Of a DNA stretch of 60,568 nucleotides, positions 523 through 16,836 are shown piece after piece; within the stretch, counting starts at the first letter, position 1, and each line of letters opens with the position of its first letter. The translations under genes and the position numbers were made by a program. The stretch is taken from positions 1 through 60,568 of the IMG/VR virus record IMGVR_UViG_3300034112_002807. One strand, given 5' to 3'. The notes beneath the pieces were generated by a model that saw only the letters and a list, made by a program, of their open reading frames with translations, was not told the origin of the DNA and made no database searches. The DNA is from a virus.

Positions 523-612
523 TTACTTCTTCTTCCCGCCGTTTTTATAGTCTTTGCCCTTGCCTTTGCCCTTCCCGTCCTTGCTGGTTTTGTAGCCCTT
601 GCCGTTCATCAT
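523..612 (-). CDS. Tiny Lys/Gly-rich basic peptide
   Basis: A 29-residue reading frame starting with two Met codons and made almost wholly of Lys and Gly with two Tyr, ending GGKKK. It is the only open frame of sense in the 180-base stretch between the first gene and the alpha-CTD-like gene, and it points the opposite way. Its composition resembles the other small basic proteins of this phage (around 7 kb and 53 kb), whose C-termini also end in GK/KKK. It could be a nucleic-acid-binding peptide. It is very short, so chance cannot be excluded. Confidence 0.4.
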   Translation of the reverse strand: MMNGKGYKTSKDGKGKGKGKDYKNGGKKK

Positions 613-678: not shown

Positions 679-1017
679 ATGAAAAGATTCCGTATTAAGC
701 TACGCTCTATTGTCTACCAGTGGGTAAATGGAGAGATAGAAGCAGAATACGCCCTTCACGAGATTCTAAAGCTTGTCGATGGGCGGTCTGTCAAGCAGTT
801 AAATCTTTGCACTAGGACTTTGCACGCTTTGCTTAGAGCGGGATATGAAACAGTTGAAGATTTGACCGAGGCTACAGAAAAAGAGCTTAAGGCTATTCCG
901 CTGATAGGACTTGGCTCTCTTCTGGAAATTGCAGCCGCACTTGATGAGTTCGAGAGGGGCGGCACAGAGCTTAATTGTATAGCCGTTAGAACGGATCTGC
1001 TTGAGGGGTATGACTGA
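679..1017 (+). CDS. RNA polymerase alpha-subunit C-terminal-domain-like protein
   Basis: Residues 38-91 read as a stand-alone alpha-CTD fold (two helix-hairpin-helix-like motifs): VKQLNLCTRTLHALLRAGY, then ETVEDLTEATEKELKAIP, then LIGLGSLLEI. Aligned by eye to E. coli RpoA, Arg46 corresponds to R265, Gly77 to G296, Ser80 to S299 and Glu83 to E302. H49, A50 and G79 replace N268, C269 and K298, so UP-element binding may be altered. Residues 1-37 are a basic helical extension; the NTD and assembly residues of RpoA are absent. It is the first gene of the left operon, so it is probably expressed early. Likely role (inference): DNA or sigma/activator contact that modulates host transcription. A plain HhH DNA-binding protein is the alternative. 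Confidence 0.7.
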   Translation: MKRFRIKLRSIVYQWVNGEIEAEYALHEILKLVDGRSVKQLNLCTRTLHALLRAGYETVEDLTEATEKELKAIPLIGLGSLLEIAAALDEFERGGTELNCIAVRTDLLEGYD

Positions 1018-1342
1018 TTTACTTAAACAGCTTGTTGAATTGCATCAATCTATCAAGTTAAAAAGAGAAAACTACAATAAAAAAATTGCTGACATTGATG
1101 ACGAGCGTGCAAATCTTTTCTACAAGGCGGCTCAGCTGGAAGAAGATACGCCAGCAATGAATGAAGTTTACCGGCAGTTAGATTTACTTGACAGTAAAGA
1201 GTTTTCGTGCTACTGTCAACTTAGAAATTTTCTTTCACTTGCTGATGAACAGATCGACAAAACAATCAAGTCAGTTGTTCAGCGAAGATTTGAATCCATC
1301 GGACCCCTTCTTCCATACATTGGTGGCGATGCGCTTGAGTGA
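1010..1342 (+). CDS. Hypothetical coiled-coil protein
   Basis: About 110 residues, charged and mostly helical (LLKQLVELHQSIKLKRENY..., then DERANLFYKAAQLEED), suggesting a coiled coil. I do not recognise a family. The ATG at 1010 overlaps the end of the alpha-CTD-like gene by 8 bases, which fits translational coupling. An in-frame TTG lies 9 bases upstream. Being sandwiched between the alpha-CTD-like gene and the replication genes suggests an early function, but nothing in the sequence defines it. Confidence 0.65.
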   Translation: MTDLLKQLVELHQSIKLKRENYNKKIADIDDERANLFYKAAQLEEDTPAMNEVYRQLDLLDSKEFSCYCQLRNFLSLADEQIDKTIKSVVQRRFESIGPLLPYIGGDALE

Positions 1343-1553
1343 GCTGAATCCGCTTATGACAGCTGAGCAGGCAAAGAAAGCAGATGACATATCAGACAAG
1401 CTTTGTAGATTTGCAGTCAGAAAGATTAAAGCTTCCGCCCAGGGCGCTAGAGTAAATCATATTCACAAGCAACAGCTTGAACTTGCAATACTTGGACGCG
1501 ATCTAGTAGTTGAGCTTGAGAACGAAATTCAAAGGAGTGAGGGTGAGCAATGA
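1329..1553 (+). CDS. Small hypothetical protein, 74 residues
   Basis: Starts MRLSELNPLMTAEQAKKADD and is helical and charged; no family recognised. The ATG at 1329 overlaps the previous gene by 14 bases. The open frame continues upstream to 1188, but there it runs antiphase through the previous gene, so the short form is preferred. It ends in an ATGA overlap with the next gene, as is typical of this operon. It may belong with the following initiator-like gene as a replication accessory, purely by position. Confidence 0.6.
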   Translation: MRLSELNPLMTAEQAKKADDISDKLCRFAVRKIKASAQGARVNHIHKQQLELAILGRDLVVELENEIQRSEGEQ

Positions 1554-2296
1554 GCAAGAAGACCGTGCCCGTCGTGTGTGACAGGTTTCTTGTCGCTCCC
1601 GCCAATCTTCTTCAGCACAACAGGAATTATATCTGGGTGTTTTTGATATTGATGAACAAAGCAAACAGTAAGAGGTCTATCGTGATTTCTGGTGATGAGC
1701 TTATTGGCTTATCGGGCCTTTCCCCTGCGGAACTGAGGCACGCTCTGTACTGGCTGATGTTGAATGGCTACGTGAGAAAGACATATTGCGAGGAGAAGGC
1801 AAAGAGCGTCTATCTCTTGAGCGTCGAGGGGGCGCTACCACACGAAATCTCGAATAACCTTCGTCCCTCTTCAAGCCAGATACCTCGCCCCACACGCTCA
1901 GTTGAGCCAGCCAAGACAAAGAGTGGGAAATTTGTTGCGACCCTTTCGGGTAGCGAGGGTGTTGCTATTCCCCCGCAATTGTCAACGGTAGCTTCAATTA
2001 TTTGCGACTTTTTTAACAATCACAAAGGGGGCGCCAAAACAAAAAGATCCTTTTACAGCTTGCTTGATTCTCTGGTTCGGATACTTGAAGATCCAGGGGG
2101 CGGCATCGAAGCGGTAAGGAAGCAGCTCGACTCTGCCATTGAAAAATCAAAGTCGGGTGAGAAAAAGTGGGACTCAATCACCTATCAGAATTGGGACAAG
2201 TTTGGCAGAGAGAAGAAGCCTCACTGGGAGCAAAACACCAGGCCCTCCACTCAGCAAATAGTTAGCACTTTTGAAGAAGACATTGCAGGTTTTTGA
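1550..2296 (+). CDS. Winged-helix replication-initiator-like protein (DnaD/replisome organiser type)
   Basis: Residues 20-95 look like a winged helix: IWVFLILMNKAN..., GLSPAELRHALYWLMLNGYVRKTY, then a wing strand. A low-complexity linker (about 100-150) follows. The C-terminal part has a helical domain and SITYQNWDKFGR, similar to the YxNW motif that follows DnaD-type domains in phage replisome organisers. The gene lies directly upstream of DnaB, the usual place for a phage initiator that loads the helicase. It overlaps the previous stop (ATGA) and is followed by dnaB after one base. Origin recognition plus helicase loading is inferred from architecture and context. Confidence 0.6.
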   Translation: MSKKTVPVVCDRFLVAPANLLQHNRNYIWVFLILMNKANSKRSIVISGDELIGLSGLSPAELRHALYWLMLNGYVRKTYCEEKAKSVYLLSVEGALPHEISNNLRPSSSQIPRPTRSVEPAKTKSGKFVATLSGSEGVAIPPQLSTVASIICDFFNNHKGGAKTKRSFYSLLDSLVRILEDPGGGIEAVRKQLDSAIEKSKSGEKKWDSITYQNWDKFGREKKPHWEQNTRPSTQQIVSTFEEDIAGF

Positions 2297-2297
2297 C

Positions 2298-3719
2298 ATG
2301 AGCATTATCAATCTCGAAAAACTTGAATCGCAGCAGGACTCCTGTGAAATTGAAAAGCACTTTCTCGCTGCCGCCTACAATCATTTCTGCTTTGCGTTTG
2401 GAGAACAGGAGTGGGCGGATAAATTTATGGAAATGTTAAAGGGGCGGGAGCTATTTTCGGACTCTTTTAACAGATATATGTTTGACTGCCTCGAAGAGGA
2501 ATATGGCACCTTTCACCAGTCTCCAACAAACGATATTACACTTGCCGCCCGACTAAGGGACATTTCTGGTTGCGAAATAAAAGCCGCTGAAGATTACATC
2601 GAGCAAATCGCTTCTTATCCCATAGAGAAGGACTTGGACGTTTGGGCGGAAAAGATAATGCCCATCTGGTACTTTCATCATTCTCGCTCAAGAGTCAAGG
2701 ACTATATTCAAAACTCTGCCGATATTGTCAGCAAGAGCTGCAACATCAAAGAATCAAAGGTCGCAACCTCATATCTACTGCAAGCAGTTGACCTGATTGA
2801 GGGGGCGGAGGTTTACAAGAAAGAGGTTCATCCTCTTATTGCAGCCAAGGAGATATTCCTGGGGCCAAAAATCAGCAATCGAGTGATCAGAACTCGCTTC
2901 ACTGGGCTCAATGCCTCACTTGGGGGCGGACTGAATCACCCCGACATGGGGAAAGGGGGGCGGCTGATCGTTGTTGCGGGGCGCCCCGGCAGTGGTAAAT
3001 CGACCTGGGCGATGAATCTTGCACTTGATGTTGCAATCAAGAACTACAAGGTTCTGTATTACACCTTGGAAATGCCAGATAGCGAGGTGTGCCAGAGAAT
3101 GCTGTCTTGCATGGACTATCTCAGGTGCCTGGAGGAAGGGGGCAGCCCTTTAACTTACGGGCACGTCATCAGGCAGGCCAAGGACGAAAAACAAGAGCAG
3201 CGGATTGTTGATACGGAGGTTGAACCGATAGCCCAAAATCTTATATTCACCAACACTTTTGAAACAACCGCCTCTCAGGTTGTTAGCAAGATCAAGTCCG
3301 AAAAAAGAAAGCACCCAGACCTGGCTCTAGTGGTAATCGACTACCTGACATTGATGGACATGGACTCTGACACCACAAAAGCCGAGAACAGGGCTTTGGC
3401 GGTGGGGGCGGCAACAAGAAAGTTCAAAATAGCAGCAACACGTACTGGTGTTGATATTTTGCTTGTTTGTCAGCTAAACAGAGGGGTCGAAAGTCGTACA
3501 GATAAGCGCCCCATGCTCTCAGACCTCAGAGAGTCGGGCAAGATCGAGGAGGACGCTGACATGGTTGTCTTCAATTACTGGCCGTATTACTACGACAAGA
3601 CACAGGATCAGATGACTTACGAGTACGCCATTGCCAAGAACAGAAAAGGGGCGACGGGAACATGCAATATCAACTTTGCCGCTGAGTGCTATGCAATGTT
3701 TGAACCCCGCCAGTGGTAG
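2298..3719 (+). CDS. dnaB: Replicative DNA helicase, DnaB family
   Basis: A hexameric RecA-type helicase that unwinds duplex DNA at the phage fork. With the ATG at 2298 the protein has 473 residues: an N-terminal helical domain (1-170), a linker, and a RecA core. Walker A is AGRPGSGKST (227-236), Walker B is LALVVIDYL (342-349), motif H3 has the sensor Gln in CQLNRGVE (around 392), and H4 is LSDLRESGKIEEDADMVV. The N-domain is diverged from bacterial DnaB, so primase or loader contacts may be phage-specific. A longer start (TTG at 2271) would overlap the initiator-like gene. It is followed without spacing by a zinc-binding primase-like gene. Confidence 0.92.
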   Translation: MSIINLEKLESQQDSCEIEKHFLAAAYNHFCFAFGEQEWADKFMEMLKGRELFSDSFNRYMFDCLEEEYGTFHQSPTNDITLAARLRDISGCEIKAAEDYIEQIASYPIEKDLDVWAEKIMPIWYFHHSRSRVKDYIQNSADIVSKSCNIKESKVATSYLLQAVDLIEGAEVYKKEVHPLIAAKEIFLGPKISNRVIRTRFTGLNASLGGGLNHPDMGKGGRLIVVAGRPGSGKSTWAMNLALDVAIKNYKVLYYTLEMPDSEVCQRMLSCMDYLRCLEEGGSPLTYGHVIRQAKDEKQEQRIVDTEVEPIAQNLIFTNTFETTASQVVSKIKSEKRKHPDLALVVIDYLTLMDMDSDTTKAENRALAVGAATRKFKIAATRTGVDILLVCQLNRGVESRTDKRPMLSDLRESGKIEEDADMVVFNYWPYYYDKTQDQMTYEYAIAKNRKGATGTCNINFAAECYAMFEPRQW

Positions 3720-15787: not shown

Positions 15788-15968
15788 GAATACTCGCGTT
15801 TGGCTGGAGGCGCCATGCCTTGCGAACGATTGGCGGTGGGTGTGTTACGGTCTTGGCATGGTGTTCGTCCATCGCCACCAATGGCAAGCCGAGTGGAAAA
15901 TGCACTGGCTACAGCTAGCATCTGGCTGTGAAGCAGAGCGATCCGAGTCTCAAGGCCTACCTCAATGA
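15780..15968 (+). CDS. Possible small Trp-rich protein overlapping the sigma gene start
   Basis: A 62-residue frame from a GTG at 15780, with NTRVWLEAPCLANDWRWVCY and HRHQWQAEWKMHWLQLASG. It would fill the 140-base divergent gap before the sigma gene, which it overlaps by 41 bases. Trp-rich composition is unusual for noise, but no family or ribosome site supports it. Confidence 0.3.
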   Translation: MSKNTRVWLEAPCLANDWRWVCYGLGMVFVHRHQWQAEWKMHWLQLASGCEAERSESQGLPQ

Positions 15969-16836
15969 GGTGGGCAAGCACCCCCTCCTGGGGGCGGACG
16001 AGGAGCTTGCGTTGGGGCGACTGGTTCAAAGACTTATCGAGCTGGAAGAAAAGCTTGACTCTGGACAGATTCTTGGCATAGAAGAAGAGATCGAAGTTTT
16101 CAAGGGGCAAAAAGCAAAGAAAAAGTTTATTAATTGCAACCTGAGATTGGTTGTTGATATTGCCAAGAAGTACCACCACCAATGCCAGAGTCTTGACCTT
16201 CTGGATTTAATACAAGAGGGTAACTTTGCGCTAATAAGAGCTGTCGAGAAATTCGATTACACCAGAGGATACAGATTTTCGACCTACTGTTATTGGTGGA
16301 TACGTCAAGCAATGCAGCGAGCTATTGGTTCACTTGATTCGCCTATCAGGCTTCCCGCAAGCTTTCGAGATATTGTTTTCAGAGTCAGCAAAGCGGCTGA
16401 AAAACTGTCAAAAGAGTTGAATCGTCGCCCCACCGCAAAAGAATTAGCGGAAGAGCTTGGAGTATCGGCAGAAATTCTCGATCTAGCAAATCAAAGGTCC
16501 CAAAGCGTGCTAAGTCTGGACGTCAAAGTTGAATGCGATACCTCAAGAGTCTCAATCATCGATAACATAGAAGACGCCGTCAATCTAAACACCGTAGAAA
16601 GCCTTGAGGACGACCTAATGCTTCAAGAGCTATTTTTTGCTCTTGAGAATTTTCTTGACGATACCACAAGACTTGTTCTTTCTGAAAGATCTCGCCCCAC
16701 CCCAACGCCATGGAAGGAACTCGAAGCCCTGACTGGATTTAACAGGCCAAAGTTAAAGCAGATAGAGAGAAATGCAATAAACAAATGCAGAGTAATGATT
16801 GAAACTCACAGAGCCATGGGTCTTGATTTTTACTAG
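15928..16836 (+). CDS. RNA polymerase sigma factor (sigma70, group 1/2-like)
   Basis: 302 residues from a GTG at 15928. Region 1.2 is DPSLKAYLNEVGKHPLL. Region 2 is NLRLVVDIAKKY, LDLLDLIQEGNFALIRAVEKFDY and RGYRFSTYCYWWIRQAMQRAI (core binding and -10 recognition). Region 3 is RLPASFRDIV and PTAKELAEELGVS. Region 4 is LDDTTRLVLSERS, TPWKELEALTGFNRPKLKQIE, shorter and more diverged than the rest, so -35 recognition may be altered. Region 1.1 is absent, as in group 2 factors. It is the last gene of the left arm, suggesting control of late genes. Its TAG overlaps the opposing gene stop. Confidence 0.9.
   Translation: MKQSDPSLKAYLNEVGKHPLLGADEELALGRLVQRLIELEEKLDSGQILGIEEEIEVFKGQKAKKKFINCNLRLVVDIAKKYHHQCQSLDLLDLIQEGNFALIRAVEKFDYTRGYRFSTYCYWWIRQAMQRAIGSLDSPIRLPASFRDIVFRVSKAAEKLSKELNRRPTAKELAEELGVSAEILDLANQRSQSVLSLDVKVECDTSRVSIIDNIEDAVNLNTVESLEDDLMLQELFFALENFLDDTTRLVLSERSRPTPTPWKELEALTGFNRPKLKQIERNAINKCRVMIETHRAMGLDFY

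What the first reader, a model, noticed from the sequence alone, without database searches (positions are those of the whole stretch)
679..1017. Stand-alone RNA polymerase alpha-CTD-like protein opening the early operon
A phage gene encodes an alpha-CTD fold without the rest of RpoA. R46, G77, S80 and E83 match DNA-contacting or turn residues, while three other contact positions differ. With a phage sigma (15928), cyAbrB (13436) and NrdR-like zinc ribbon (14623), it suggests a multi-part transcription takeover in which phage factors replace or compete with host contacts at promoters. The alignment is direct; the takeover role is inference.
Basis: partly seen in the sequence, partly recalled or inferred. 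Interest (0 to 1): 0.72.

Follow-up and report, generated by a model that had tools for sequence, protein, structure and literature searches.

The report
Phage orphan RNA-polymerase alpha-tail domain
A freshwater, probably cyanobacterial, virus carries a small gene for just the DNA-touching tail of the bacterial RNA polymerase alpha subunit; such orphan tails recur in many phages, but here it is an optional extra gene with a worn contact surface, so the proposed multi-part takeover of host transcription is not shown.

Summary
The protein is real. ORF 679-1017 (112 aa) carries an alpha-CTD at residues 36-90 (Pfam PF03118 E=5.7e-12, 45.6 bits against a cut-off of 23.8). An AlphaFold model on 33 sequences gives only RNAP alpha-CTDs as its top 50 PDB matches. 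It is conserved in five IMG/VR records under purifying selection (Ka/Ks about 0.12).
The rest of the reading is weaker. It does not open the early operon: the window begins at a contig break, and relatives have over 7 kb of co-oriented genes upstream. It opens the replication module (coiled coil, helicase, others).
It is an accessory gene: one close relative (helicase 98% identical) has lost its 5' two thirds, and three more distant relatives carry other genes in that slot, yet all keep the sigma gene. Contact residues are eroded: R265, G296, S299 and E302 are kept; N268, C269, K298 and the sigma-facing D259/E261 are not.
Orphan phage alpha-CTDs are a recurrent, uncharacterised kind: 45 viral loci, none RpoA, about half fused to a sigma region-4 domain; 20 of 21 sampled records lack a phage sigma.
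Best reading: an early accessory alpha-CTD mimic acting in trans on host transcription (about 0.42). Main rival: a replication-module DNA-binding accessory (about 0.28).

The parts
679..1017 (+). Gene for the orphan alpha-CTD protein (112 aa, P0001)
   Evidence: ORF; PF03118 E=5.7e-12; Ka/Ks about 0.12 against three relatives
784..948 (+). alpha-CTD core (residues 36-90), helix-hairpin-helix fold; R46, G77, S80, E83 kept of the seven classic DNA contacts
   Evidence: Pfam span; AF2 plus Foldseek; residue census
682..777 (+). N-terminal two-helix extension (helices 2-16 and 22-33), basic first helix, no PDB relative; the only part of the gene that differs between records L003 and L005
   Evidence: AF2 secondary structure; no PDB hit; L003/L005 differences confined to codons 6-25
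1010..1342 (+). Coiled-coil-like protein, 110 aa; its ATG overlaps the end of the alpha-CTD gene by 8 bases, so translation may be coupled; kept in all relatives, also those without alpha-CTD
   Evidence: sequence; synteny
1356..3719 (+). Core of the replication module directly downstream: small ORF 1356-1553, ORF 1550-2296, DnaB-type helicase 2298-3719
   Evidence: DnaB_C E=6.4e-56; PHROG helicase; synteny
15928..16836 (+). Phage sigma factor; regions 1.2, 2 and 3 clear, region 4 diverged (no Pfam region-4 match; K593 and R596 positions are N and N)

Best explanation
The gene encodes a free alpha-CTD mimic: an alpha-CTD fold without the alpha-NTD that would tie it to RNA polymerase, preceded by a basic two-helix extension. 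It is an accessory early gene at the head of the replication module. The most likely mode is action in trans during early infection: the domain sits on promoter-upstream DNA, or on surfaces where host regulators or sigma normally meet the host alpha-CTD, and so weakens or redirects initiation by host RNA polymerase, possibly anchored by its N-terminal helices or by the co-translated coiled-coil protein. Shown: the fold, the missing alpha-NTD, conservation, position, dispensability, and which contact residues remain. Inferred: DNA binding, the partner, and the effect on transcription. Because K298, N268 and other basic or polar DNA-face residues are lost, weak or altered DNA binding and a partly protein-binding role are expected rather than canonical UP-element recognition.
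For: PF03118 match over cut-off and best solved relatives all RNAP alpha; AF2 fold matches only alpha-CTDs at the top. R265, the residue on which alpha-CTD-DNA and activator contacts depend, is invariant in this family and in 25 other viral alpha-CTDs. Independent orphan alpha-CTDs recur in phages, about half fused to a sigma region-4 domain, which links the kind to transcription initiation. Purifying selection. Precedents for phages acting on this domain: T4 Alt/ModA modify Arg265 (PMC2988021); Rac of LUZ19 causes the alpha-CTD to be cut off RNAP, and that paper cites G1 gp67 and P2 Ogr as factors that block or use the alpha-CTD (PMC7552054).
Against: Three of seven DNA contacts and the sigma-facing acidic pair are gone, and K271, N294 and K297 positions are L; core net charge is -5 against -1 to -3 in host domains. 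The gene is lost or not found in relatives that keep sigma and replication genes. Its neighbours are replication genes, not regulators. No binding or expression data exist.
Confidence: 0.42

Rival explanations
1. A replication-module accessory: the alpha-CTD fold is reused as a minor-groove or backbone-binding helix-hairpin-helix that helps the phage helicase/loader or origin DNA, and has nothing to do with promoters.
For: It is the first gene of the replication module and overlaps the next gene. The hairpin reads G-L-G (77-79), the classic helix-hairpin-helix form (own knowledge), where E. coli, B. subtilis and Synechocystis alpha-CTDs have G-x-K. Neighbours of other orphan or fused viral alpha-CTDs are also replication and DNA-metabolism genes: helicase loaders, SSB, DNA polymerase, RecT, methyltransferases. 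Sigma-facing residues are lost.
Against: The profile is specific for alpha-CTD, with general helix-hairpin-helix families below cut-off. The replication genes persist without it in G004, G005, G007 and G008. Fusions of viral alpha-CTDs are to sigma region 4 and repressor-type domains rather than to replication proteins.
Confidence: 0.28
2. A dedicated partner of the phage sigma: it supplies an alpha-CTD contact next to the diverged sigma region 4 at phage promoters.
For: Both genes occur in the window and in three of the five alpha-CTD-bearing records, the other two being fragments of 8 and 26 kb. Both sides lost their charged residues (Q/N against N/N). Sigma region 4 plus alpha-CTD fusions exist elsewhere.
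Against: Sigma is kept and equally diverged in region 4 in relatives without alpha-CTD. Orphan alpha-CTD phages usually lack a phage sigma (1 of 21). The genes are 15 kb apart.
Confidence: 0.12
3. A counter-defence or decoy protein that mimics the host alpha-CTD to occupy a host regulator or defence factor.
For: It sits in a slot whose content varies between relatives and shows a recombination tract in the N-terminal extension, as accessory conflict genes do. The BREX protein PglW model has a stretch that matches a viral alpha-CTD (weak match).
Against: No direct evidence of a target; conservation is as expected for any accessory early gene.
Confidence: 0.1

Closest known systems
C-terminal domain of bacterial RNA polymerase alpha subunit (RpoA, PF03118)
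   Same: Same fold and profile; R265, G296, S299 and E302 equivalents kept
   Different: No alpha-NTD, so no means of assembly into RNAP; N268, C269, K298, D259 and E261 equivalents replaced; extra N-terminal two-helix part; only about 34% identical to B. subtilis and Synechocystis alpha-CTD
Phage proteins already annotated as 'RNA polymerase alpha subunit C-terminal domain-containing': Mycobacterium phage Mithril A0A5Q2WLP1, Rhodococcus phage Finch A0A2P1JY10, uncultured Caudovirales phages; Bacillus phage Goe8 QDP42789.1 'RNA polymerase subunit alpha'
   Same: alpha-CTD without RpoA in a phage genome; gp68 of the related phage Zenteno07 also has A at C269 and G at K298
   Different: Different N-terminal parts and hosts; no function known for any of them in the material searched
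Viral sigma region 4 - alpha-CTD fusion proteins found here (e.g. L017, L018, L078, L081)
   Same: Orphan viral alpha-CTD in early or DNA-metabolism regions
   Different: Carry sigma region 4 and mostly keep the acidic sigma-facing and basic DNA-facing residues; P0001 does not
Cyanosiphophages KBS-S-2A, S-CBS1, S-CBS3, S-LBS1
   Same: Related sigma factor, and for KBS-S-2A related large terminase
   Different: No alpha-CTD found in them by tblastn

Membership tests
RNA_pol_A_CTD domain family (PF03118) | Profile score over the curated cut-off | tested here: met
   45.6 bits against 23.8; profile positions 13-67 of 67
RNA_pol_A_CTD domain family (PF03118) | alpha-CTD fold | tested here: met
   AF2 model; all 50 top PDB matches are RNAP alpha
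RNA_pol_A_CTD domain family (PF03118) | Seven-residue DNA-contact set (R265, N268, C269, G296, K298, S299, E302) | tested here: inconclusive
   4 of 7 kept (R, G, S, E); H, A and G at the other three
RpoA, complete alpha subunit | alpha-NTD for assembly into RNAP | tested here: not met
   112 aa, no alpha-NTD; NCBIfam rpoA models match the CTD only and far below cut-off
Canonical alpha-CTD that contacts sigma region 4 | Acidic 259/261 patch | tested here: not met
   Q40 and N42 in all five records; 18 of 25 other viral alpha-CTDs have D/E at 259 and 20 of 25 at 261
General HhH proteins (RuvA, ligase type) | Best profile or fold match to HhH families instead of alpha-CTD | tested here: not met
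   HHH_5 22.7 bits below cut-off 27; no such fold among the 50 PDB matches shown
Phage transcription-takeover factor | Alters host RNAP transcription | not testable with these tools
   Needs biochemistry
Phage transcription-takeover factor | Conserved linkage with the phage sigma | tested here: not met
   Sigma kept where alpha-CTD is deleted or not found; 1 of 21 orphan alpha-CTD viral records has a sigma region 2

The most novel reading that the evidence does not exclude
Phage orphan alpha-CTDs, alone or fused to sigma region 4, form an unrecognised class of early proteins that rewire the UP-element/-35 end of host promoters in trans, and the cyanophage protein is a divergent member that has moved from canonical DNA contacts to a new partner.
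Probability: 0.25. Interest if true: 0.75.

Novelty: new member of a known kind. Interest (0 to 1): 0.42.

Why it matters
The alpha-CTD is a known target of phage modification (T4 Alt/ModA) and removal (LUZ19 Rac). That phages also carry free copies of the domain, repeatedly and often fused to the sigma domain that the host alpha-CTD touches, gives a small, expressible protein set with which to test whether an untethered alpha-CTD can steer host transcription. The protein here would be the first such case described for a cyanophage-like virus, as far as the collections searched show, but it is an optional gene with a partly worn contact surface, so its own weight is moderate.

Tried and rejected
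Capture from the host rpoA: no close link to cyanobacterial alpha-CTD in a 56-column tree, where the family sits on a long branch (2.0 changes per column), but holding them together is not rejected (p-AU 0.23), so origin is open. Cellular relatives: a close-relative genome scan found none, and an alignment-based scan found only RpoA of candidate-phyla bacteria plus one Cohnella tandem alpha-CTD protein. Paired charge loss between P0001 and the phage sigma as proof of partnership: rejected because sigma relatives without alpha-CTD lack the same basic residues. Single-sequence AlphaFold: poor (pLDDT 53), replaced by the alignment-based run. N-terminal extension against PDB: nothing. Promoter and terminator scan of 1-1400: nothing. 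One alignment (A5) gave no usable scan pattern. Literature for phage orphan alpha-CTDs or sigma region 4-alpha-CTD fusions: nothing specific in the open library.

Full report
1. What is there. The ORF at 679-1017 on the + strand encodes 112 residues. Residues 36-90 match RNA_pol_A_CTD (PF03118) at E=5.7e-12 and 45.6 bits, about twice the curated cut-off; over the few hundred ORFs of the window this is far beyond chance. General helix-hairpin-helix models score 22.7 bits or less, below their cut-offs. The nearest solved sequences are alpha-CTDs of B. subtilis and Thermus. Without an alignment AlphaFold2 fails; with 33 sequences drawn only from fetched loci it gives mean pLDDT 78.7, with most of residues 11-90 at 85-96 and a disordered tail after 95. 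Foldseek E-values are modest (8e-3 to 0.15, none below 1e-3), but all 50 PDB rows shown are RNA polymerase alpha subunits or their CTDs, and most isolated CTDs superpose at 0.8-1.6 A over 53-57 residues.

2. Contact residues. Equivalent to E. coli numbering (E. coli sequence from own knowledge; Synechocystis and B. subtilis), the protein keeps R265 (R46), G296 (G77), S299 (S80) and E302 (E83), and has H, A and G at N268, C269 and K298. K271, N294 and K297 positions are all L. The acidic residues that face sigma region 4 (D259, E261) are Q and N. In 25 other viral alpha-CTDs R265 and N268 are invariant, 298 is K or R in 21, 259 is D/E in 18 and 261 is D/E in 20. So this protein is an outlier even among orphan alpha-CTDs: DNA binding may persist through R46 and a G-L-G hairpin, but canonical UP-element and sigma contacts are not a safe assumption.

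3. Position. The gene does not open the early operon. The window record begins inside a repeated region; the near-identical record L001 has 1.5 kb more upstream, and L002 and L005 carry more than 7 kb of mostly co-oriented small genes upstream. It does open the replication module: its end overlaps the ATG of a 110-aa coiled-coil-like protein, followed by a 65-aa ORF, a 248-aa ORF and a DnaB-type helicase. No sigma-70-like promoter or terminator was found nearby.

4. Conservation and loss. Five IMG/VR records keep the gene at 88-100% identity with the same downstream order; Ka/Ks is about 0.12. Between L003 and L005 all differences in the gene fall in codons 6-25, in the N-terminal helices, while the core and following genes are identical, a sign of a recombination tract. 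In the record behind L006/L025/L054 (G004) only residues 77-112 remain; the upstream part has been replaced by a stretch with an alanine/tryptophan-rich repeat gene, while the helicase is 98% identical and the sigma gene is intact. In G005 (helicase 81%) and G007/G008 (58-59%) the slot holds other genes: a 102-aa unknown, and zinc-type proteins of up to 130 aa that share a C-terminal part with the window's NrdR-like protein. Sigma is present in all eight closest records. The alpha-CTD is therefore an accessory gene; sigma is core. All these records may be fragments, so single absences are weak, but in G004, G005, G007 and G008 the slot itself was read.

5. The wider kind. An alpha-CTD alignment scan of IMG/VR returned 45 loci, none an RpoA by inspection of the ORFs. 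Some encode 72-200 aa proteins with little else, several are large fusions, and about 23 join a sigma region-4 domain to the alpha-CTD, some behind a repressor-like helix-turn-helix; eight of these were checked by profile (L016, L017, L018; L073, L078, L080, L081, L090). Several contigs are near-copies, so 23 is not a count of independent events. Phage proteins of this kind are already named in databases (Mithril, Finch, uncultured Caudovirales, Bacillus phage Goe8), but I found no paper that gives them a function. Only 1 of 21 such records has a sigma region 2, so they probably work with host sigma as a rule. Neighbouring genes with a known family, for both lone and fused forms, are mostly DNA-metabolism and replication genes, which is also where the window's gene lies; this keeps the replication rival alive.

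6. The takeover set. Sigma 15928-16836: regions 1.2, 2 and 3 over cut-off, no region-4 Pfam match, K593 and R596 equivalents N and N. NrdR-like 14623: the zinc ribbon over cut-off, the full NrdR model far below. cyAbrB 13436: below cut-off. The sigma basic patch is lost in the whole group with or without alpha-CTD, so it does not indicate co-adaptation. Host: the terminase and sigma are near those of cyanosiphophages, so a cyanobacterial host is likely but not proven.

7. Verdict. What it works like: a free alpha-CTD, the state that LUZ19 Rac creates by having the host alpha-CTD cut off (PMC7552054), on a domain that T4 attacks at Arg265 (PMC2988021). Membership: it belongs to the alpha-CTD domain family by profile and fold; it is not RpoA, and it fails the test for a sigma-contacting canonical alpha-CTD. 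A trans-acting effect on host transcription is my best reading at 0.42; a DNA-binding accessory of the replication module follows at 0.28.

Noticed in passing
L016, L017, L018, L073, L078, L080, L081, L090 and others: Viral proteins that fuse a sigma-70 region-4 domain to an alpha-CTD, the two parts that touch each other in host RNAP at the -35/UP boundary; some carry a repressor-type HTH in front. About 23 of 45 viral alpha-CTD loci by inspection.
   Followed up: partly
15928-16836 and L022-L029: The phage sigma family has an eroded region 4 (E585 as P, R588 as K, K593 and R596 lost in the window); relatives differ at the same positions, which suggests altered -35 recognition.
   Followed up: partly
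523-612, minus strand: 29-aa lysine/glycine-rich ORF (MMNGKGYKTSKDGKGKGKGKDYKNGGKKK) antisense to the alpha-CTD leader, with similar ORFs in L003, L004 and L005.
   Followed up: no
L006 7500-7750 and L060 (reverse complement) 865-1536: Gene with a long alanine/tryptophan/glutamate-rich repeat in the variable region upstream of the replication module.
   Followed up: no
L065, L105, L107: Large proteins with two alpha-CTD copies in tandem, cellular (Cohnella) and viral.
   Followed up: no
L003 against L005, gene start: Recombination tract limited to the N-terminal extension of the alpha-CTD gene, with identical sequence downstream.
   Followed up: partly
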